NCBI GenBank assembly: GCA_000961805.1
Contig: LADV01000138.1
Span: forward strand, 1-21,466
Source: Peptococcaceae bacterium BRH_c23
GTDB lineage: Bacteria > Bacillota_B > Desulfitobacteriia > Desulfitobacteriales > Desulfitobacteriaceae
Length of the DNA: 21,466 nt
Reading direction: 5' to 3'
Position numbers and translations under genes: made by a program. The notes beneath the pieces are model-generated. The model was not told the DNA's origin and made no database searches. It saw only the letters and a list, made by a program, of their open reading frames with translations. Positions 7,123-21,084 of the stretch are shown here, in pieces; the stretch's first letter is position 1; every line of letters begins with the position of its first letter.

Positions 7123-7156
7123 TTGTCAATGATATATGAAAAAGGTATATTTAGGT
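7123..7156 (+). promoter_or_regulatory. Sigma-A-type promoter, repeated block copy 1 (permease)
   Basis: TTGTCA (7123-7128), a 17-base spacer and TATATT (7146-7151) make a near-consensus promoter. The 34 bases 7123-7156, including the whole spacer, are identical to 11604-11637 in front of the Wadjet operon. The downstream gene starts at 7238, leaving a leader of roughly 80 bases. A small inverted repeat, AAGACCA (7079-7085) / TGGTCTT (7091-7097), lies just upstream. Confidence 0.75.
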
Positions 7157-8416: not shown

Positions 8417-8540
8417 GTGTAATCTCAATCCTTTGGTGGATTTTAATTAAAATATTCGATGTATCAGGTTAACAAAGACCGATCACAAATGATGTACCTT
8501 GGTCGCTATGGAGTCTAAGCAGGAAAAGGAGCGTTATTTA

Positions 8541-9516
8541 ATGTCAGATTCACAAGAGAAAATTTCCGTACAAGAAATACTTAGACAACGAGTTTCTTTG
8601 CGTCAGTATGCTGATTGGCCAGTTAAGGACGATGACATTATGACAATTATTGAGGGCGCCGACCGCCGGGAATATGATGATGTATTCGATGATTATAGTC
8701 TCGGATCAAGACTTAAAACAGCGCTTGAGCGAGACGTGTGATGATCAACCGTTTATCGCTAAAGCTCCGCTGGTTATTGTTTTCCTAGCAGATCTGCAGA
8801 GATGGTATGATTATTATCATGATTTGGGGGTTGCAGATTTTTGTATAGAACGAGAGCGGGAATTTTCTGGGCCAGATGAAGCGGGTTTATTGTTAGCAAG
8901 CTGCGATGCCTTAATTGCGGCCCAAAATGCTGTAATTTCGGCAGAAGCTCTTGGAATTGGATCGTGTTATATCGGAGATATAATGGAGAATTATGAAATA
9001 CATAAAGAACTACTCAATCTTCCCCCGTATGTGTTCCCGATCACTATGCTCTGTTTTGGGTATTACCCGGAGGGCGAACGACCAAAGCCGAGGGATCGTT
9101 TCGATTCCAAATATATTGTGTCCGAAAATAAATATCAGCGCCTAACTGAGAAAGATCGGAAAGCTATGTTTGCAGCTCGGGCAGAAGGATTCAATCCCAA
9201 TGGGACAGATAGTACAGAGCGGGGGCGAAGTATGTGGGCCCGAGTTAAAGGAAGAACGGAAAACGATCTATTACGACTTCCCTTCAAAAGAGCGTATATG
9301 TTTCGTCCGGGTTATATCCATCCGACAAAGGGTTTAAAAAGGACTAATAAATATTATCGCGCCATCTCATGGCTTTATCCTGTCGTAAAGCATCTTATTC
9401 CAAATCACACAATTTCCATGAGAGAACTGGGCATTGCCATGATTCATACTGTTAATAAAGGTTACGATAAATCAATCCTAGAGTGTAAGGATATTGCAAA
9501 GTTAGCCAATACATAG
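8541..9516 (+). pseudogene. Nitroreductase-epimerase chimeric pseudogene
   Basis: The first part, from ATG 8541 (AAGGAG at 8525-8530), encodes a nitroreductase N-terminus (EILRQRVSLRQYADWPV, with the FMN-contacting R-x-S-x-R pattern). Near 8650 the frame shifts: the expected continuation (RAPTAGNMMMYSMIIVSD) lies one frame over, so a few bases were lost in the IIEGA-RAPTAG segment. Nitroreductase sequence continues to about 9200 (SAEALGIGSCYIGDI, PITMLCFGYYPEGERPKPRD). The rest is a different family: STERGRSMWARVKGRTENDL, then YMFRPGYIHPTKGLKRTNKY and LECKDIAKLA match the C-terminal end of NAD(P)-binding epimerase-like (SDR) proteins. A deletion apparently joined two neighbouring genes. The frameshift makes even the chimera unlikely to be functional, unless the part from TTG 8650 is translated alone. 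Confidence 0.8.
9195..9206 (+). other. Deletion junction between nitroreductase and epimerase sequences
   Basis: Around the codons for FNPNG the protein character changes from nitroreductase tail (MFAARAEGFNPN) to epimerase tail (GTDSTERGRSMWARVKG). The frame is kept across the join. Base-level placement is approximate. Confidence 0.6.
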
Positions 9517-9555
9517 ATATGGTTTTTGACTATGGAATTATTTTATATATTGGAA

Positions 9556-9583
9556 TATAATCATCTTAAAAATATTTAAGATG
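9556..9583 (+). promoter_or_regulatory. -10 box with adjacent perfect operator-like palindrome
   Basis: TATAAT at 9556-9561 is followed at once by a perfect inverted repeat: CATCTTAAA (9562-9570), AATA, TTTAAGATG (9575-9583). This is an ideal site for a dimeric repressor acting on the ferredoxin-type gene. The -35 is weak (TGGAAT at 17 bases). The palindrome also spans part of the ribosome binding region. Confidence 0.5.
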
Positions 9584-9592
9584 AGGAGACCT

Positions 9593-10817
9593 ATGGCACA
9601 TAGAAGTATAAAATCTGGATTCCATCAATTGAGCGAACGACTTAATCGATTTCCTCAAGGGGCTCCGCCTTCCGAATATTTATCTAAGATCCTTAGTGTC
9701 TTAATGAATGATAAGGAAGCGAGAGTCATGTCGGCGTTACCCATAAAACCCTTCACAATCCAGACCGCCAGCGCAGCATTAAGAAAGAGTCAAGAAGATA
9801 CTGAAAAGATACTGAAAAGATACTTACAGAACTTGCTTCTCGGGCCATATTGATTGATATTGAGAGTACGAAGGGCGAGAGAACCTTTCTTTTACCACCG
9901 CCTATGGCAGGTTTCTTTGAATTTTCCCTGATGCGTATCCGAGAAGACCTTGATCAGACCTTAATTTCTGAACTATTTTACCAATACTTAAATGTTGAAG
10001 AGGATTTTGTCCGGGATTTATTTGTGACTGAAACAAAGCTGGGAAGAATCTTTGTGAATGAACAAGCCTTAAGCACAGCGAATAATTTGCATATTCTGGA
10101 TTACGAACGAACAAGCGAAATTATCAAGCTTGTGCTGCCCCCTTAGAGATATGCATGACCTTTGGGACTACCGCTGCAAGCCTCATAAAATATGGCCATG
10201 CCAGGGAAGTTGGCGTTTCAGAATGTTTGGGTTTGCTTGAAAAGGCTTACGACCACAATCTGGTTCAAATAGGGGAAAACGAACAAGAAGGGTTACCCTT
10301 TATTTGTAATTGTTGTGGTTGCTGCTGCGAAGCTCTGCTGGCCATCAAGAAATTCGGCACTTTAAATGCCATAAATACAACTAATTTTCTGCCTGAGCTT
10401 AGGAAAGATCTTTGCAACGGCTGCGGAAGGTGTGTCTTGGCCTGTCCAGTGGGAGCTTTAAAGGTAGTTTCACAATCCGTCACACATGATAAAGTAGTAA
10501 AGAAGGTAACGTTGGATGAAGAAGTATGCTTAGGTTGCGGTGTTTGTGTCAGAGCCTGTAACCGTGGATCGATCAAACTTAAGCACAGGAACAAACGGGT
10601 TATTACTCCGGTAAATTCTGTACATCGAATCGTGTTGTTGAGTATCGAAAGAGGGAAACTCCAGAATCTAATTTTTGATAACCAGGCTCATTATAGTCAC
10701 CGGGCTATGGCAGCGATCCTGGGGGCTATTTTAAAAATGCCTCCTATCAAACAAATCATGGCTAGTGAACAGATGAAATCAAAGTATCTTGCGGCTTTAG
10801 TTAGAAATTATAAGTGA
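9593..10817 (+). pseudogene. Broken 4Fe-4S ferredoxin-type protein
   Basis: Three pieces in three frames belong to one gene. Piece 1 (9593-9853) starts at ATG 9593 with TGAGGAG upstream. Piece 2 (to 10146) is joined to it if one copy of the 11-base tandem repeat at 9797-9818 is removed. Piece 3 (about 10148-10817) carries the Cys-rich part: FICNCCGCCCEAL, then two [4Fe-4S] motifs, CNGCGRCVLACPVGAL and CLGCGVCVRACNRGSI, and a conserved tail (VITPVNSVHR, NLIFDNQAHYSHRAMAAILG). Between pieces 2 and 3 the text jumps from EIIKLVLPP-stop to EICMTFGTTAA; from memory of this family a further Cys-rich stretch (CYCRHKM-type) normally lies here and is missing. Role in the intact family: electron-transfer protein, partner unknown. 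The Cys-rich part could be expressed from ATG 10155, but no good ribosome binding site is seen. Confidence 0.82.
9797..9823 (+). repeat. 11-base tandem duplication causing a frameshift
   Basis: GATACTGAAAA occurs at 9797-9807 and again at 9808-9818, followed by GATAC. Deleting one copy restores the reading QEDTEKILTELASRAILIDI across the two frames. This is a clear replication-slippage mutation. Confidence 0.9.
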
Positions 10818-11100: not shown

Positions 11101-11200
11101 TAAGGATAGAGGGTCAAGAAAGGAAAATAGCATGTCTAGTAATATCAAGAAAGATGCAGAATGGGCTGAAGCAAAAAAGAAATGTAGACTTAACGAAGAA
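11101..11200 (+). repeat. Flanking direct repeat, upstream copy
   Basis: From TAAGGAT at 11101 through the ribosome binding site and the first roughly 21 codons of the small gene, this stretch matches 19475-19574 with about 14 mismatches and no gap over about 90 bases. Similarity starts at the TAA and is lost after the codons for CRL. Confidence 0.75.
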
Positions 11201-11374
11201 ACTGTGAAAATGGCCAAAGAGATGGGATTAAACCCAAGAAGTCTTATTAAAAATATACCCAACAAAAATGAACTGTGGAAGGCGCCGGTAAGTATTTGGA
11301 TTCGGGAAATATATCAAGAACGCCAAGAAAAGGCCCTCAAGAAAAAGGCTCAGAAAGAAAAGGCCTCAGAATAA
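11132..11374 (+). CDS. Small conserved protein of unknown function (80 aa)
   Basis: This highly charged small protein starts KKDAEWAEAKKKCRLNEETV, has a conserved-looking core (MAKEMGLNPRSLIKNIPNK, ELWKAPVSIWIREIYQ) and a Lys-rich tail. The start ATG 11132 has GAAAGGA about 8 bases upstream. I recall similar short proteins from Firmicutes but know no function. There is no signal peptide or membrane segment, and the basic charge would suit a nucleic-acid or protein partner (inference). The leader and first 21 codons are repeated, at about 84% identity by eye, directly after jetC at 19475. It follows the exonuclease stub and is closed by a terminator at 11475, so it is a separate unit from the Wadjet operon. 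Confidence 0.8.
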   Translation: MSSNIKKDAEWAEAKKKCRLNEETVKMAKEMGLNPRSLIKNIPNKNELWKAPVSIWIREIYQERQEKALKKKAQKEKASE

Positions 11375-11603: not shown

Positions 11604-11637
11604 TTGTCAATGATATATGAAAAAGGTATATTTAGGT
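11604..11637 (+). promoter_or_regulatory. Sigma-A-type promoter, repeated block copy 2 (Wadjet operon)
   Basis: TTGTCA (11604-11609), a 17-base spacer and TATATT (11627-11632). The full 34 bases are identical to 7123-7156. Transcription would start near 11640, about 50 bases before the jetD ATG. Flanking bases on both sides show only patchy similarity to the first copy. Confidence 0.78.
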
Positions 11638-11689
11638 GAGTCTTAGATAATATTTGCAAAGAATAGGGCGACTGAAAGAGGAGATCGGT

Positions 11690-12745
11690 ATGAAACGACT
11701 CGAACAAGTTCTTAAAAATCCCAAGAAAACGATTTCTGATCAGGAACTACAACAGATCTTCCAAGAATCAGATTATGACCTCTTTCACACTGAAGTTGAA
11801 AGGTTGGTAGAGCGCGGAATTCTTAGTCCAGTAAAGTCTGCCAAGAGCAATGGACGCTTGCCGCCTCTCTTTAATAAATATCGAATTATCAAACCGCAAG
11901 CTGATAATACCGGTTACCTTGAGTCGATTCGTCGCCTCAATCCGGTTTTAAACCTTTCCGGTTATTTGCAAAGACCGGAATTATATAAAAAGCACTTGGA
12001 GATTATTGAAGGGATCAGTCGATATTTGTGGTTTGCTAAGGATTTATTAAAAATGCCCATGTCCCGTAAGGAACGGTCATTTTCGGTGTGGGGCAGGGAA
12101 AAGATGTTGGATGAGCATAGGGCCTTAGTTATGGAAGTGCTAAAGTTTAATCGCTTAGACGAGAACTTTCTTAATTATTACGATACTCCGGAACCGTTTT
12201 TTGAGTATATTCATGACCGTGGCGAGCCCATGACTATCTTAGTGATCGAGAATAAAGACACTTGGTTTACCTTCAGAAAGCTGATGCAAGCTACGGGCAA
12301 AAATTGCATTACAGGCAGGGTCGTCAATGTGCTCCTGTATGGTGAAGGAAATAAAATTACTAAACAAAGGGCCTTGGAAGACTATAGCGCCACTATGTTA
12401 GGTGGACAAGGGGACCAGGCTGGCTCTTCTGGACAGGCAGCCCGCTTTCTCTACTTTGGTGATCTCGACTGGGAGGGTATCCGTCTGTTTTTTCGTACCC
12501 GCGAAGCCAACCCGACCCTCGAGCTAAAACCCTTCTCCCCTTTGTACCGGCTTATGCTCGAAATGGGTCAATCGCTTGAACTGCCAAAATCTCTCGATCA
12601 AAGAGGAGTTAGTGCTCCACTTTCAGAATTTCTCGCCTTATTGGGATTGCCTGAGGAGGAGAGCCTCGGAGCTTGGTTGGCTGAGGGTAAGTACATACCT
12701 CAAGAAATTATTAATTATCAGGTGGCAGCAAAGATTATAAAGTAG
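11690..12745 (+). CDS. jetD: Wadjet system protein JetD (Toprim nuclease)
   Basis: This 351-residue protein has an N-terminal winged-helix-like, DUF3322-type region and a C-terminal Toprim domain (DUF2220-type, related to topoisomerase VI A). Metal-binding residues are visible: E187 in LVIENKDTW, and D258/D260 in YFGDLDWEG. In characterised Wadjet systems JetD is the nuclease that cuts circular plasmid DNA after the SMC motor complex has extruded it. ATG 11690 is preferred because AGAGGAGA lies 6 bases upstream; an in-frame TTG at 11654 has no such site. It is the first gene of the operon, with 21 bases to jetA. The length and catalytic residues look intact. Confidence 0.88.
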   Translation: MKRLEQVLKNPKKTISDQELQQIFQESDYDLFHTEVERLVERGILSPVKSAKSNGRLPPLFNKYRIIKPQADNTGYLESIRRLNPVLNLSGYLQRPELYKKHLEIIEGISRYLWFAKDLLKMPMSRKERSFSVWGREKMLDEHRALVMEVLKFNRLDENFLNYYDTPEPFFEYIHDRGEPMTILVIENKDTWFTFRKLMQATGKNCITGRVVNVLLYGEGNKITKQRALEDYSATMLGGQGDQAGSSGQAARFLYFGDLDWEGIRLFFRTREANPTLELKPFSPLYRLMLEMGQSLELPKSLDQRGVSAPLSEFLALLGLPEEESLGAWLAEGKYIPQEIINYQVAAKIIK

Positions 12746-12766
12746 AAGAAACGAGGCTTCGATAGA

Positions 12767-14380
12767 GTGGCTACGACAAAACTTGAGTTTCTAGACGGCT
12801 TTGAACAGAGGATGAAGCTGGTTGCGGCGATTGACTCCATTATCAATCGCGGCAATCGAAAAATGGAATTTGAGCGCTTGTTCGAGCCTGGGCAGTTAGA
12901 TAACATCATCCTTTCTGTCCTTGTGTTCATCATGGAGAGGACGTTAACCGAGGACGAAGATTGTACCATGGAGAGTATCGCTAACTTTGTTGCTCAGATC
13001 CTCCCAGACTATTCTCTGAACCTGACCTCGGACATCCATCGAAAGCTGACCGAATACATCATCAAGGACATACTGCAAAATGGCGGTGAGGCCAGGTACT
13101 ACCCAGTCATGAAGTATGGCCAGGGCATGGAACAACTGCGGATCAGACTGATTGATGACAAGCTCATCGATGATCAGCGCGGCTATGTCTTAAATTATCA
13201 GCTCACGGATCAAGGGTATGACTTACTCTTTCGAACCAAAGAAGTTGAGCAGGAAATCAGTTTTACAATAGAAGAACTGAAACTCAGAGAACTGATTAAA
13301 CGTAAAAATTACAAGAAAGCCATCGGGCAAAGTGCGAACTTGGTCCAGATGATCCGGCAAAAGAAGAACGATATCAGGCAGTTTGTCCAGAAAGTCCGAG
13401 AAAACATTTACGACGTGAACATCGAAGAATTTGAACGCTTAGTCTCCAGTACCTATACCTTACTCGAAGAAGAGTACGGCATGATGAATGAGATTCGCGG
13501 CATGATTGTGCTTTCGGAAGAACGCCTCAAAGAAGAGGAAAACACTCGGGGAGCGTTGGATGAGCAAATGACGAAAGCACGCTCAGAGATTGCTGTGATC
13601 CGACGAAATATCAATCTAACCATTGGAGAACAAAAGGAATTGATTCTTGAGCGTCTCAGTCTGTCACGAATCTACAAGGAAACCATTGCCGATTCCTTTG
13701 CTCTGTCGAGGGCCCGTTATTATGACCTTGAACAAGTCATCTTGAAACCCCTAGAGCAATGTGAAGAAAACAAGGTTCCCTATCTCTGGCAATTATTAAA
13801 CCCCTTATTCAAGCCCAATCCGGACCGCACACTTAACTTACTAACCTTGTTTGAACGGCAAGCACGACTCAAACAGGAAGAAGAGGGGTCTCAGAGTATT
13901 GTCGTAGAGGAATTAGGTGAAGACAAAGAACTGCTCAGAATTAGTAAACTAAACGACAGTAATATCGAATTTATCCGGAGCCTATTAGAGTTTGCCCATC
14001 GCAAACGGGAGTCCTTTAGATTTAGCGAGTTCTTTCAGGATCTCGAAACTCAACAAAATATCTTTAAAGAATTAACGATAGACGATTTGATTTTCAAGAC
14101 GATGTTAAAGCTCTATGATCTCCAAGTGATCGATATAAAGAAATGGAAAACACAGCAGGAAGATGTGGTCGCGAATGCCACAGGGGAACTTGATGTCAGC
14201 TATTGTCTGTATCGTATTATGCAATATACACAGCCGGACTTATTTGGAATCAAAAAATTAGAGATTAGTAAACCGGACGAACACCTATTTGCTCAAGAAA
14301 TAGAGGCCCAGATCGGGGACGGGAAGTTTAGCAGGCGCATCGCTATCAGCGATTTTAGGATTGAGGTGAGCTTTGAGTGA
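12767..14380 (+). CDS. jetA: Wadjet system protein JetA (kleisin-like subunit)
   Basis: This 537-residue protein lies second in the operon. It has an N-terminal helical/winged-helix part (LEFLDGFEQRMKLV, then SIINRGNRKMEFERLFEPG), a central coiled-coil stretch (about residues 190-310, rich in E, K and R), and a C-terminal part with DDLIFKTMLKLYDLQ. It resembles the JetA/DUF5716-type proteins that take the kleisin role, bridging the SMC heads; the assignment rests on operon position, size and general character. The start is GTG 12767 with ACGAGG 11 bases upstream. Its stop overlaps the jetB start in a GTGA, so the two are translationally coupled. No lesion is seen. Confidence 0.8.
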   Translation: MATTKLEFLDGFEQRMKLVAAIDSIINRGNRKMEFERLFEPGQLDNIILSVLVFIMERTLTEDEDCTMESIANFVAQILPDYSLNLTSDIHRKLTEYIIKDILQNGGEARYYPVMKYGQGMEQLRIRLIDDKLIDDQRGYVLNYQLTDQGYDLLFRTKEVEQEISFTIEELKLRELIKRKNYKKAIGQSANLVQMIRQKKNDIRQFVQKVRENIYDVNIEEFERLVSSTYTLLEEEYGMMNEIRGMIVLSEERLKEEENTRGALDEQMTKARSEIAVIRRNINLTIGEQKELILERLSLSRIYKETIADSFALSRARYYDLEQVILKPLEQCEENKVPYLWQLLNPLFKPNPDRTLNLLTLFERQARLKQEEEGSQSIVVEELGEDKELLRISKLNDSNIEFIRSLLEFAHRKRESFRFSEFFQDLETQQNIFKELTIDDLIFKTMLKLYDLQVIDIKKWKTQQEDVVANATGELDVSYCLYRIMQYTQPDLFGIKKLEISKPDEHLFAQEIEAQIGDGKFSRRIAISDFRIEVSFE

Positions 14381-15078
14381 GCGATATTAAAACGGCGCTC
14401 AAGATCTATCGGAAATTAGTCGAAAAGGGACAGCTGGATCGAGAAACTGAGGGGGATCTCTTCCTGGAATTTCGCAATGTGGAAGTCAGGGCAATCCTGG
14501 CCGAATTTGAAGAAGAACTCGATTTTAAGACCATCGAAGTGGCGGGAACGCTTTATCTGCTTCCTAATAGCGGGAACGGTGTTTTGGGCTTTACGACGAA
14601 GGATATCCGGGAGAGTGTGGCAACGGATGCTAGACTAGTGGATGCCTACTTACTTAGCTATATTTCCATGTTCATTTTATACTTATTTTATGGTGGACGG
14701 AATCGGAATCCCAAGCAGCGAGAGTTTTTAAGAATTAGCAAGTTAATTGAAGAACTGGACAGGCGCTTTGCCATGGCCTTGGCTGATCGTGAGCAGGTGA
14801 AGGTGCTAGAGGAAAATTATGCCCTTAATTTTACGAGGATTGCAGAACTATGGGATAGCAAACAGGACTTCGAGGAAAGAGGTCGTAAAACTAAAACAGG
14901 TACGATCTTAAATACTTGTCGACTCTTAGAGCGAGAAAACCTACTCAGACTCGTGGATGAGGATCGGGAACTACGTCCCACCCGGAAACTGGATGACTTG
15001 ATGCTAAATTACTACCTGGACGATAGCCGAGTAGAAGAGATAAAAGGGTTCTTCGAAGGAGCTGAGCTGGATGCCTAG
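14377..15078 (+). CDS. jetB: Wadjet system protein JetB (KITE-like subunit)
   Basis: This 233-residue protein has a winged-helix character (DIKTALKIYRKLVEKGQL at the start; TGTILNTCRLLERENLLRLV near the end), as expected for the KITE subunit that binds the kleisin in MukBEF/Mks/Wadjet complexes. The family name is inferred from size and from its place between jetA and jetC. It starts at GTG 14377 with GAGGTGAG just upstream and overlaps jetA by 4 bases and jetC by 8 bases (ATGCCTAG). It appears complete. Confidence 0.8.
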   Translation: MSDIKTALKIYRKLVEKGQLDRETEGDLFLEFRNVEVRAILAEFEEELDFKTIEVAGTLYLLPNSGNGVLGFTTKDIRESVATDARLVDAYLLSYISMFILYLFYGGRNRNPKQREFLRISKLIEELDRRFAMALADREQVKVLEENYALNFTRIAELWDSKQDFEERGRKTKTGTILNTCRLLERENLLRLVDEDRELRPTRKLDDLMLNYYLDDSRVEEIKGFFEGAELDA

Positions 15079-16348
15079 AATCAATCGAATTCGGATTATT
15101 AACTTTTCGTACAATAATGATTCGCGGCATATTCAGGATGAAACCTTTAACTTTCACGGTGGAGAAAACGCCCTCCTTAGCTTAGCCAATGGCGGGGGAA
15201 AAAGTGTCTTGGTTCAGCTCCTATTTCAGCCCATCGTTCCAGAAATCAGAATTCAAGGCCGTCGCATCAACGCTTTTTTCCGCAAGAAACGCTTACCGGC
15301 TTATGTCCTGATCGAATGGAAGTTAGATGGGGCCGGCGGCTATCTACTGACGGGTATCGGAATGGTGTCCGCAGAAGTTTCCGGGGTTGAGGATGAGAAA
15401 AACAAGGTGAAGTATTTTACCTTCACGTCAAACTATCCTGGCTCGAACGCTTTCGATTTAGCCCATATCGAGCTAGTTAAACAAAGCGGCAATATTCTGG
15501 AGATCAAGCCCTTTAGAGAGGCTTGGGAGATGATGGCCGATAAGGAGAAGAAAGATCTTTATCATTTTGGCTGTTTTTACGATGATGATGGGGACCGCTA
15601 CCGAAAACGTCTGGCTGAATTTGGGATTGCCCAGGATGAGTGGAGAAATATTATCGCCAAAATCAATGATAGCGAAGGCGGTTTAGACGAGATTTTCCAA
15701 AAGTATAAAAACTCCAGCCAATTGCTCAACGATTGGATCATCAAAACCATCGAGAAAGTGATCTTCAAAGATCGTTCTGAAGCTCACAGACTAGAGGAAA
15801 TGTTGGCAGGTTTAGTGCGGGAGGTCATCGAGAATGAACGCTTTATCTTAGAAAAGCAAGTTCTCGACGAATTTCTGGGGGTCTATGGAGAGCAAGTAGG
15901 GGCTTTAGTCGAACTGCTTAACCGCTTGGAAGAACAAAAACTTATTGGAGGTAAACTGGCGGCCTTAAACAGTTATTTAAACACTGAAACCATCGTGCTG
16001 AAAGGAACTCACGAGCAAAATAAAGAGGAATTAGTCACCATTAACCAAGAACAGCTGCGAATCAACCTAGAGGAACGCTCCAATACGTATTGGTTAAGAA
16101 GTGACGAGCATGCTTTGGCTGCCTCAAGACTGGCAGAGGCTGAAAAGAATAGTCAAGAAAACGAAGATAAGCTTGAAGCTGCAAAACGGTCCGGAAAAAT
16201 AATGCAAGCTGCTGGCCTAAGAGCTGAGATCAGAGGAAAAGAAGCCGATCTTTCCGGAATCGATGAAAAGTTGGCCACTTCTAGGTCACAATGCGATACG
16301 GATGAGAGGATGCGTAATCTGGAGTATTCCCTCAAGAAATTATCTTAA
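15071..16348 (+). pseudogene. jetC: jetC, N-terminal part (SMC-like ATPase, ends at in-frame TAA)
   Basis: These 425 codons start at ATG 15071 with AAGGAG at 15056-15061. The ATPase head holds a Walker A motif (SLANGGGKS, residues 37-45, K44). The coiled-coil arm begins near residue 240 and runs to the stop (EYSLKKLS-TAA at 16346-16348). Reading past the TAA in the same frame continues the coiled coil (ETIQTLELALSRLGEKRTD) without a break, so this is the front of a protein of about 1468 codons. JetC is the SMC motor of Wadjet, which extrudes plasmid DNA with ATP. Alone, this piece lacks the signature and Walker B motifs. The TAA could come from CAA (Gln) by a single C-to-T change. Confidence 0.85.
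16346..16348 (+). other. In-frame TAA interrupting jetC
   Basis: This one TAA is the only stop in a frame otherwise open from 15071 to 19477. It sits in coiled-coil sequence with no frame change, repeat or inserted element next to it. Confidence 0.9.
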
Positions 16349-19300
16349 GAAACAATACAAACCCTAGAGTTAGCTTTGTCACGCCTAGGTGAGAAAAGAA
16401 CGGATCAGAGAACTGCACTGGATCAGCTCAAACGCGACTCCACGAAGCTGGATCGGGACTTAATGAACTATGCGGGAGACAAAGGGAGCCTTCAGCAACA
16501 AACTAAGCAATACGAGGCTCATGAACGGGACGTTAAAACCAAGCTTAAACTCAGCCTAAATAGAAATCTGCTGGGAGAACTCTCAGCAAAGGATATTGAG
16601 AAGACACGTCTAGAGCTTAAGAAGACCCAGGATAACTTGCAACTAGAGGGTAAAAGACGGGTCGAGGAAAGAACTAAGATTGAACAAAAACAACTGGAGG
16701 CGGAACAAGAACTTCAAGGATTACAGGAAGCAAAGTCTAACGAAACCAATCTCCTTCGTGGCCTAGAGCGAGAAATTGCTGAATATGAGCAACAGGAACA
16801 GGAAATTCAAGGGATTCTCCAAAAGTTTGGCTTTGACTTTGAACTACGCTTTGACAGGGAACGTCTCCGCACAGCCTTTAGCCAGCTGCTCAAAAACTTG
16901 GATCAAAGCCTCGAAGAAGCGGTGCGGATTCGTGATGATTCTACCGAGTCTCTTACTTCACTTAAAAACGGGAGACTGCATATCCCCGAAGAAATTATCT
17001 CTATTCTGGCCAATCAGGATATTCAATATGACACCGGCGAAACGTATTTGCGCAACCAGCCCCTGGAAATTCGGCAAACAATGCTGGCTAGAAATCCGGT
17101 CTTGCCCTATGCCCTGATTTTAGCCAGGGAGAATATAGAACTCTTAGCCCAGTCTATGAACCGAATGACCATGCGACGGGTTATTCCGATTATTGCCTAT
17201 GAGGACTTAGGTGTCAGTTTGACGAGCGAGGACAGATTTGTTCAGACCAGTGAAGGACTTTCTCTCGTTTGTCTGTATGAGGGCAGGGTCTTTGACAATG
17301 CTAGCCTAGTGAAACTTGAAGAGGAATTGAAACAAAAGCAAACAGAAGCGCTGGAACAGTATCAACATTATTCCGAGGAGCGCAATGAAGCAGTTGCTAA
17401 ACAGGCCATCTGTGGGCGTTTTGTCTATAAGGCGGAGTATCGCTATGTCCTGGGTAAAAAGTTAACTGCCAGTGAAAAGCAGCTCCAGACAATTCAAACG
17501 AGAACGGATCTCCTTAAAATGGAAAAGGCAACCCTCCGCACTGCTCAGGAAGAACTTGAGCAAAGGATCCAAGAAATGAAGGCTTCTCTACAAAAAGCGC
17601 AAGTTGCCGTTGAGACGTTTGAGACCTGGATGGAACAAGAAGGAGACTACCAAACCTGTCGGAGAAAGCTCGCGGAAATCATTGAAGCGATAACCGGCTC
17701 AGAGGGGAAAAAGTCAGAATTGACCGCAAGCCTAGATAAGCTGCAGGCAGAGAGCGGAAAATTATCCTTAGAGATTGAGCGGACCGAAAGCGCATCGAGG
17801 GATATCCGAAAAAAGTACATCTCCTATCAGAATGCGCCGGAAGCAGAACTAGTCGAGGGTACGCTAGAAGACTTGGAGGCACGACTTAGAGCCTTGAAGG
17901 CGTCGTATAGCGGAGAAATTGAGCAACTGGAAAAACGTAAAACTGAACTGCAGTCGGAATGTGAGAAAAAGGAAAAAGAGATTACTAAACTAGGTCTGCT
18001 GGAAAGCGACTATCATGGAGTAGTCTATGATGAAGGAACGGTTGAGGCAATTCATGCGGAGATCAACAGCCTGGAAGCGTTAAGTAGGAAGAGACAGCAG
18101 GAGGAAAAGAAAGCAGTTAGAGATGAGGGATCGGCAGATACAGCTCGTGCCAACGCACTTGAGGAAATAAAAAAACTGGGCGCAGAATCCCCTCTCAGTC
18201 CTGAAGATATCAAAGGGGATTTCCAAGAACGGCGTTATAAGCTATCGAGGCAGCATACCAAACTGCTCCAAGAGATCGAGCTCATATCTCGAAAAATCAG
18301 CGATTATCACAAGTTGATGGAACAAATCAGTTCCTATAGCAACGGAGTGAGCTTTGAACCGGTAAAAGGGTTCCGCCCTGAACAGGATATTAAGGCTCAA
18401 ACTAGGGTGTTAGGAGAAGGCTATCGTAGTGTGGAAACCAAGAACCGTACCCAAACCGACGCCCTCAGAAACAAGTATATCGGAATGAAAGCCGACTATC
18501 GGGAAAGAAATACGAACATCAGCAATATCTTTAAAGGGCTTGATCTGCTTTGGGAGAAGGTTGATATGGATTATGACAGTTATTATTATCTTTATGAACG
18601 CATGAGCCTGCATAAAGATAAGCTTCGGGAATTAATTCAACTTCATGAAAACCAACTCTCCAATTTAGAGCGAAACAAAAAGGATATGATTCAACAGAGC
18701 CTACTCCATGGGATGAGGTTTTTTGAAGAAATAGAATGGATATCCGACCATTCCAAGGTACGTCTGCAAGGAAGAAGCAGACCTGTGCAAATGCTCAAGA
18801 TTGAACTATCCTTGGATTCTAGTGATGCCGCAGGGATGCGGATGAAGGAATACATTGAAGAGTGTATTTTGAAAGTGCGCGAGGAAACCAGAGCGGAAAA
18901 AAGCGAGGAAGACGTCAAAAAGGCTGTCGCTAAATTGATGTACAGCCGAGAATTATTGAATGTCTATTTGGGTAATTCGAATATTCCTGTCAAGGTCTTT
19001 AAGATTGATCTTAACATGCAAAATAGCAGTCTTAAGACCTGGGAAGATGCCGTGCGAGAGAACTCAGGTGGGGAAAAGTTTGTCGTCTACTTCTCCGTAC
19101 TCTCGGCCTTAATGGCTTATACCCGATCCCGTACCCTAGAAGCTGCGGGTGCCGACGAAGAAAAGGATTCCAGTGTCTTGGTGATGGATAATCCCTTTGG
19201 CCCTATATCTTCGGAACACCTGCTCAATCCACTCTTCGAAATTGCCAAAAAACACCGCACTCAGCTCATCTGTCTTTCCGATCTGAAACAAAACTCGATT

Positions 19301-19477
19301 ATGAATTGCTTTAACTTAATCTACATGCTGAAGGTAAGGACCAGTGCCATCGGAAGTAATGAGTATCTAAAGTTTGAAGAACTTATTCGGGATGAAAACG
19401 CGATTCAGAACGATGAAAAGCTGGAAAAAGCCATTTTCAGGGTTTCTGAGGCTAAGCAGATCAACTTATTCGATTAA
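16349..19477 (+). pseudogene. jetC: jetC, C-terminal part (coiled coil and second half of ATPase head)
   Basis: This is the remaining 1042 codons of the same frame: long heptad-like coiled coil rich in E, K, Q and R, a hinge-like middle (about 16980-17300: LPYALILARENIELLAQ, RRVIPIIAYEDLG), the returning coiled coil, and the C-terminal head with the ABC signature (ENSGGEKF at codons 1330-1337 of the full gene) and Walker B (SSVLVMDNPFG, D at codon 1373). The DNPFG variant is, as I recall, usual for this JetC branch and not a lesion. The first possible restart is TTG 16376, with no convincing ribosome binding site before it, so expression after the TAA is doubtful. If translated, the two halves could in principle still pair through their coiled coils. 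Confidence 0.83.
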
Positions 19478-20516: not shown

Positions 20517-20825
20517 TTAGAGGATTCGAGGGAAATTCTGTTTGCAGTGAAGCACACGATGAACTTCCACAGTATTATCCTCCATAACCAGGATATAGAA
20601 CACTAGATAGGGATCAACAACGATCATGCGATAGCCCTGTTCAGCGATCTTTTTGTCTAACGGCATTGGACCCATGAGTGGAAATTCCGCCAGCCTGCCT
20701 ATGGACGCTTTTATATTTTCATACATTCTGATAGCGGCATCGCGATCATCTAAGCGAATATGCGCAACAATGGCTTTCATGTCATCTTGCGCAATCTGCA
20801 TGATTCTAATTTTATAATTTGCCAT
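20517..20825 (-). CDS. RelE/ParE-family toxin
   Basis: This 102-residue protein starts YKIRIMQIAQDDMKAIVAHI and carries MYENIKASIGRLAEFPLMGP, GYRMIVVDPYLVFYI and VEVHRVLHCKQNFPRIL, the usual order of the ParE/RelE fold. Its start overlaps the end of the antitoxin gene by 14 bases. ParE toxins act on gyrase and RelE toxins cleave mRNA; the sequence alone does not say which. It is complete at both ends and should be co-transcribed with the antitoxin. Confidence 0.9.
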   Translation of the reverse strand: MANYKIRIMQIAQDDMKAIVAHIRLDDRDAAIRMYENIKASIGRLAEFPLMGPMPLDKKIAEQGYRMIVVDPYLVFYILVMEDNTVEVHRVLHCKQNFPRIL

Positions 20826-21084
20826 GTGCCAACACCTTCAGTTCGCTCATCGCTTCGTCGAAGTCCAGCATAGGCACACCATTGGCTTTTTGTAATCGAG
20901 CTTCCAGCAGCTTTTCGCGGATTTCCAGTGCTCGTTCGCGCTTCTCAAAAGCGTCAATACTCATTACGGTTAAATCGCCTTCGCCGTTGACGGTAACATA
21001 CACCGGTTCGCCGGATTCATGGCAGTACTTGGAGATTTTGCTATAATCGTTCCGCAGTGAGGTGGACGATTTGATGGTCGGCAT
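20812..21084 (-). CDS. Phd/YefM-family antitoxin
   Basis: This 90-residue protein has the Phd/YefM N-terminal DNA-binding pattern (STSLRNDYSKISKYC, then EPVYVTVNGEGDLTVMSIDA) and a helical C-terminus (REKLLEARLQKANG, LDFDEAMSEL) that would bind the toxin. The start ATG 21084 has AAGGAG about 8 bases upstream. It is the first gene of the pair and is expected to repress its own promoter at 21129-21157 together with the toxin. Confidence 0.92.
   Translation of the reverse strand: MPTIKSSTSLRNDYSKISKYCHESGEPVYVTVNGEGDLTVMSIDAFEKRERALEIREKLLEARLQKANGVPMLDFDEAMSELKVLAHGKL

What the first reader, a model, noticed from the sequence alone, without database searches (positions are those of the whole stretch)
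11604..19477. Wadjet operon (jetD-jetA-jetB-jetC) with one nonsense codon in the SMC gene
Four tightly coupled genes encode a Toprim nuclease, two small SMC-partner proteins and an SMC-like ATPase. Only jetC is damaged: a lone TAA at 16346-16348 in an otherwise open 1468-codon frame. Everything else, including Walker A, the signature and Walker B, looks preserved, so the change is recent, is a sequencing error, or the split is tolerated. A split SMC with Walker A on one chain and signature/Walker B on another would be new for Wadjet.
Basis: partly seen in the sequence, partly recalled or inferred. Interest (0 to 1): 0.78.

Follow-up and report, generated by a model that had tools for sequence, protein, structure and literature searches.

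The report
Anti-plasmid operon with freshly broken gene
A bacterium related to Desulfosporosinus carries a normal type III Wadjet anti-plasmid operon whose motor gene appears to have been switched off recently by a single stop codon, an ordinary case of a defence system starting to decay.

Summary
The window carries jetD-jetA-jetB-jetC, and all four proteins match PADLOC type III Wadjet models best. The jetC frame (15071-19477) has one internal TAA, 16346-16348, codon 426.

All 34 aligned relatives have a sense residue there. None of 24 full-length or partial JetC3 places in 82 genomes of the class has an internal stop, while five other loci hold only jetC wreckage. The window's exact C-terminal piece and exact JetA are each credited to 7 contigs, so a one-off base error is unlikely. 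The downstream piece has no promoter-like site and no good ribosome site. Selection on that piece is not relaxed and no second lesion exists, so the stop is young. Two upstream genes are true pseudogenes.

Best reading: a recent loss-of-function nonsense mutation in a standard operon. A split working SMC is not excluded but has no positive support. A damaged jetC is already in print (PMC9252829, passages).

The parts
11604..11632 (+). promoter-like element TTGTCA-17-TATATT before jetD
   Evidence: 10 of 12 consensus matches; 2 sites found in the region against 1.0 expected from shuffles; the longer 31-base motif lies upstream of jetD in 6 of 9 operons within 2 mismatches, weaker in L037, absent in L002 and L004
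11690..12745 (+). jetD, Toprim-type nuclease subunit, 351 aa
   Evidence: PADLOC JetD3 334.6 bits; Pfam JetD_C 23 bits, cut-off 22; VIEN and GDLDWEG stretches invariant in 8 of 8 aligned JetD
12767..14380 (+). jetA, kleisin-type subunit, 537 aa
   Evidence: PADLOC JetA3 918 bits
14377..15078 (+). jetB, KITE-type subunit, 233 aa
   Evidence: PADLOC JetB3 359.1 bits; Pfam DUF6063 144.7 bits
15071..16348 (+). jetC, part before and including the stop (425 aa; Walker A)
   Evidence: PADLOC JetC3 positions 1-426 of 1471, 235.4 bits
16346..16348 (+). in-frame TAA, codon 426
   Evidence: sense residue in 34 of 34 relatives
16349..19477 (+). jetC, part after the stop (hinge, second arm, signature, Walker B); first in-frame start TTG 16376
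   Evidence: PADLOC JetC3 positions 440-1450 of 1471, 327.3 bits; predicted 16S pairing at TTG 16376 only -2.4 kcal/mol

Best explanation
This is a type III Wadjet operon of a bacterium related to Desulfosporosinus (chromosomal place inferred), recently disabled by a nonsense mutation in jetC. Intact Wadjet makes a JetABC loop-extruding complex that recognises small circular DNA and lets the JetD nuclease cut it (published for other types, carried over here). With the stop, translation should give a 425-residue head-and-coil fragment without the C-terminal half of the ATPase head, so no working motor and no closed ring form and plasmid restriction is lost. Shown: operon, stop, uninterrupted relatives, absence of further lesions. 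Inferred: loss of function, and that this is the first step of the decay seen in other genomes of the class.
For: Operon and type. One internal stop in jetC and none in jetD, jetA or jetB. Sense residue at that codon in 34 of 34 aligned relatives and no internal stop in 24 of 24 full or partial JetC3 places. jetC wreckage at five other loci of the class, in one of which the jet promoter element is joined to a jetC tail. Exact C-half and exact JetA both credited to 7 contigs, longest 28864 bases. Downstream start codons have poor ribosome sites and no promoter-like site is near. Young age: dN/dS after the stop no higher than in relatives, 1 of 293 invariant columns broken, neutral divergence limited to about 0.013 per site. 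Two decayed genes upstream. All four subunits are needed for plasmid suppression in B. subtilis and cleavage needs a working JetC ATPase (PMC10586767, passages).
Against: No read data, expression or activity data exist here. The 7 contigs may be re-assemblies of one data set, and that the contig number counts exact copies is my inference. The rest of the operon and the downstream frame look fully maintained, as they would if the split still worked. For the part before the stop, dN/dS on the window's branch is higher than on both other branches in two of three comparisons, about 0.14-0.15 against 0.06-0.11; this is not what a loss of the downstream part predicts. jetA, a real gene, also has only a moderate ribosome site (-5.9), so weak pairing alone does not prove absence of translation.
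Confidence: 0.85

Rival explanations
1. Sequencing or assembly error: the gene in the cell is intact and the operon works normally.
For: No reads can be inspected; no genome is held; selection looks undiminished, as it would in an intact gene.
Against: The exact C-half starting at codon 436 and the exact JetA are each credited to 7 contigs with the same longest contig, 28864 bases. The nearest uninterrupted JetC listed is only 87% identical. Neighbouring genes carry 11-61 base indels, not the marks of base-call noise.
Confidence: 0.08
2. Working split SMC: ribosomes restart after the stop (TTG 16376 or ATG 16463) and the two chains pair through the coil arm to rebuild JetC.
For: The downstream frame is fully open and conserved. 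The stop lies in a weakly conserved stretch between the head and hinge blocks. In a type I Wadjet the elbow-to-hinge part can be removed without losing plasmid cleavage, provided the ring is held closed (PMC12647877, section 10 read).
Against: Predicted 16S pairing -2.4 at TTG 16376 and -4.9 at ATG 16463, against a background median of -4.0 and -11.4 to -11.5 for jetD, jetB and jetC. No promoter-like site in 16000-16700. No internal stop in 24 of 24 full or partial relatives; the 6 of 54 truncated relatives that I read end at different places. Youth of the lesion explains the conservation without any function.
Confidence: 0.05
3. Leaky or switchable allele: occasional stop read-through, a suppressor tRNA or strain mixture keeps some full-length JetC.
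For: Only the undiminished conservation.
Against: No tRNA gene in the window (the rest of the genome is not held). TAA is usually the least leaky stop in bacteria (recalled). No uninterrupted version above 87% identity is in the listed hits.
Confidence: 0.02

Closest known systems
Intact type III Wadjet operons of the same order, e.g. Desulfosporosinus metallidurans OL (L003)
   Same: Order D-A-B-C; JetD 81%, JetA 90%, JetB 95%, JetC 83% identical; same promoter-like element before jetD
   Different: L003 has no stop inside jetC
Wadjet operon with a frameshift in jetC used as an example in the PADLOC web-server paper (PMC9252829; passages read)
   Same: Four-gene Wadjet operon in which only jetC is damaged, so that default detection misses JetC
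   Different: Type I and a frameshift; here type III and a nonsense codon
Null mutation in the EptABCD (Wadjet) operon of a laboratory Mycobacterium smegmatis strain (PMC10586767; passages read)
   Same: Loss of a Wadjet system by mutation, giving better plasmid uptake
   Different: Other operon type and lineage; the passage does not say which subunit is hit

Membership tests
Wadjet type III | JetA, JetB, JetC and JetD all present, all best matched by type III models | tested here: met
   JetD3 334.6, JetA3 918, JetB3 359.1, JetC3 235.4 and 327.3 bits for the two pieces; the only other-type match was JetD1 at 21.5 bits
Wadjet type III | Gene order as in relatives (D-A-B-C) | tested here: met
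   Relatives with the whole operon in the fetched stretch show the same order; that this is the published order of type III is recalled
Wadjet type III | Toprim acidic residues of JetD | tested here: met
   VIEN and GDLDWEG stretches invariant in 8 of 8 aligned JetD; their role as the catalytic site is recalled from the Toprim family
Wadjet type III | One uninterrupted SMC-type JetC with Walker A, signature and Walker B on one chain | tested here: not met
   Internal TAA at codon 426; the motifs themselves are present in the frame. It is therefore filed as a damaged type III operon, not as a working one
Wadjet type III | Restriction of small circular plasmids | not testable with these tools
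   Needs a transformation assay
Naturally split SMC | Second chain has its own start signals | tested here: not met
   No promoter-like site in 16000-16700; ribosome-site energies -2.4, -4.9 and -4.1 at the first three in-frame starts, background median -4.0. Restart after termination cannot be excluded this way
Naturally split SMC | The split recurs at the same place in relatives | tested here: not met
   0 of 24 full or partial JetC3 places carry an internal stop; 6 of 54 truncated relatives read, ends at different places

The most novel reading that the evidence does not exclude
Both jetC pieces are translated, the second by restart near codon 436, and pair through the coil arm into an active type III Wadjet with Walker A on one chain and signature plus Walker B on the other: a naturally split SMC motor.
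Probability: 0.04. Interest if true: 0.7.

Novelty: new member of a known kind. Interest (0 to 1): 0.16.

Why it matters
It is a clean snapshot of the first step in losing an anti-plasmid system: one lesion, with everything else still looking maintained. If the split worked, it would show that an SMC ring tolerates a natural break in its coil arm, but nothing here supports that beyond the intact downstream frame.

Tried and rejected
Searches that gave nothing: plasmid records (megablast), phage records (tblastn with JetA only), viral contigs by the JetC alignment and by a pattern across the stop. Downstream of jetC no similarity to the window was found in the 4 relatives tested, up to 1500 bases each. 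NCBIfam gave no match for JetD, JetA or JetB and only weak ABC-F and SMC matches for the jetC pieces. The two jetC pieces matched no solved structure by sequence at E 0.001.

Recurrent split considered and dropped: the N-half search, limited by length to proteins of about 234-744 aa, gave 54 truncated relatives. I read 6 of the 54 (P0002, P0005, P0006, P0013, P0014, P0024); their ends lie at different places. One, P0005, ends in an odd tail near residue 400, not far from this stop; it was not followed up. The window's own 425-aa piece is not among the 54, perhaps because it sits in another cluster; this was not settled.

Database listings were capped (best 120 of 440, best 120 of 257). Row P0070 was not used as a reference row in the conserved-column count because it is incomplete. 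L002 jetD was left out of the jetD codon alignment because its frame is broken.

Full report
What is there. Four genes lie in one direction: jetD 11690-12745, jetA 12767-14380, jetB 14377-15078 and a jetC frame 15071-19477. jetA overlaps jetB and jetB overlaps jetC; an AGGAG lies just before ATG 11690 of jetD. All four match PADLOC type III Wadjet models best: JetD3 334.6 bits, JetA3 918, JetB3 359.1, and JetC3 235.4 and 327.3 for the two jetC pieces. jetC is broken once, by TAA at 16346-16348, codon 426 of 1468. The pieces before and after the stop match one profile in register (positions 1-426 and 440-1450 of 1471).

Where it comes from. No genome is held for the window. JetA is 90% and JetB 95% identical to those of Desulfosporosinus metallidurans OL (L003). 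No match was found in the plasmid, phage and viral collections by the searches used. A chromosomal place is inferred.

Is the stop real? The protein database lists the window's exact C-half (P0074, 1033 aa, from codon 436) with 7 contigs, the longest 28864 bases, and the window's exact JetA (P0176) with the same two numbers. The contig number seems to count the representative sequence only, since another cluster of 44 members lists 1 contig (P0090); that is my inference. On that reading the contigs with this JetA also have this C-half. The closest uninterrupted JetC listed is 87% identical (P0056). The contigs may be re-assemblies of one data set, so this weakens the error hypothesis without ending it.

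Do relatives share it? In an alignment of the window with 34 relatives, all 34 have a sense residue at codon 426. A search of 82 genomes of the class with the JetC3 profile at E 1e-30 gave 27 places in 26 genomes: 21 span nearly the whole profile, 3 are partial (G002 and G024 reach a contig end; G032 was not checked) and 3 are wrecked (G022, G030, G035). None of the 24 full or partial places has an internal stop. Two smaller remnants, in G027 and G001:C17, came from a protein search of 73 genomes of the order. The wrecks show frame changes and missing stretches: G022 keeps a whole jetB, a jetA tail of 20 residues and a jetC in several frames that ends near residue 651; G027 has the jet promoter element joined to a jetC tail. 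G035 is a 3111-base contig and could be a misassembly. Loss of jetC therefore recurs in the class; a one-stop split does not.

How old is it? After the stop, pairwise dN/dS is 0.13-0.15 between the window and its four closest relatives with DNA (L038, L037, L003, L001) and 0.14-0.17 among those relatives. Three-point estimates for that part give 0.10-0.12 on the window's branch and 0.14-0.17 on the others, in three of three comparisons. Before the stop the picture is mixed: 0.08, 0.15 and 0.14 on the window's branch against 0.06-0.17 on the others, higher than both others in two of three comparisons. The window breaks 1 of 293 otherwise invariant columns; the relatives break 0 to 12. No second stop has arisen in the frame. 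With about 5.2% of single changes making stops, that limits neutral divergence since the lesion to about 0.013 per site at 95%, against 0.17-0.34 synonymous changes per site on the window's branch. The bound assumes neutrality and ignores indels. The lesion is young, which by itself explains why the rest looks preserved.

Could the split work? The first start codons after the stop, TTG 16376, ATG 16463 and TTG 16637, have predicted 16S pairing of -2.4, -4.9 and -4.1 kcal/mol; the median for other in-frame positions is -4.0. jetD, jetB and jetC have -11.4 to -11.5, but jetA only -5.9. No promoter-like site lies in 16000-16700. Restart after termination stays possible. The break lies in a weakly conserved stretch between the head and hinge blocks (the naming of the blocks is inferred). 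For a type I Wadjet the elbow-to-hinge part can be removed without losing plasmid cleavage provided the ring is held closed (PMC12647877, section 10 read). A split is not absurd, but nothing positive supports it. All four subunits are reported as needed to suppress plasmids in B. subtilis, and cleavage needs a working JetC ATPase (PMC10586767, passages), so loss of function is the plain expectation.

Neighbourhood. Just upstream, a nitroreductase gene (from 8499) lacks 11 bases relative to L049, and its last part matches a different gene elsewhere. A ferredoxin-like gene (9581-10817), one frame of 437 aa in L045, has an 11-base tandem duplication and lacks about 61 bases. These are real pseudogenes and fit a locus in decay.

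Known precedents. A jetC frameshift is shown as an example in the PADLOC web-server paper (PMC9252829, passages), and a laboratory M. smegmatis strain carries a null mutation in its Wadjet operon (PMC10586767, passages). PMC12287153 was seen in passages only. Six split-SMC phrases gave one paper, on cohesin, seen as a listing (PMC10425840); the listings showed no title or abstract start that reports a split JetC.

Verdict. A standard type III Wadjet operon, most likely inactivated recently in jetC. Interest is low.

Noticed in passing
7123-7153 and 11604-11634: A 31-base promoter-like motif occurs twice in the window, identically, before an AI-2E-type transporter gene and before jetD (0 expected in shuffles). 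In 82 genomes of the class it occurs 15 times in 13 genomes within 2 mismatches, 0 for the reversed control (27-base form): before jetD in 5, a PanE-like gene in 3, AI-2E-type transporters in 2, an acyl-carrier-like ORF in 2, a jetC remnant in 1, unclear in 2 (gene names by eye except AI-2E in the window). It may mark a small shared regulon.
   Followed up: partly
19187-19198 (jetC codons 1373-1376): Type III JetC has Asn where the Walker B motif of SMC proteins usually has the catalytic Glu (recalled): D-N-P-F in all 34 rows that reach it, one row gapped, and in 4 of 6 distant JetC3 loci; in L025 and L026 it was not found in the fetched stretch.
   Followed up: partly
8499-10817: Two neighbouring pseudogenes: a nitroreductase gene with an 11-base loss and a foreign tail, and a ferredoxin-like gene with an 11-base tandem duplication and a loss of about 61 bases.
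   Followed up: yes
11132-11374: A small 80-aa gene upstream of jetD is 80% identical over 75 aa to one that lies downstream of jetC in L040.
   Followed up: no
7136: The ATG listed for the AI-2E-type gene lies inside the promoter-like motif, so the true start is probably the GTG at about 7237.
   Followed up: no
20517-21084: A toxin-antitoxin-like pair (RelE-like and Phd-like by eye, no profile run) on the minus strand; a Phd-like relative also lies upstream of jetD in L002 and L004.
   Followed up: no
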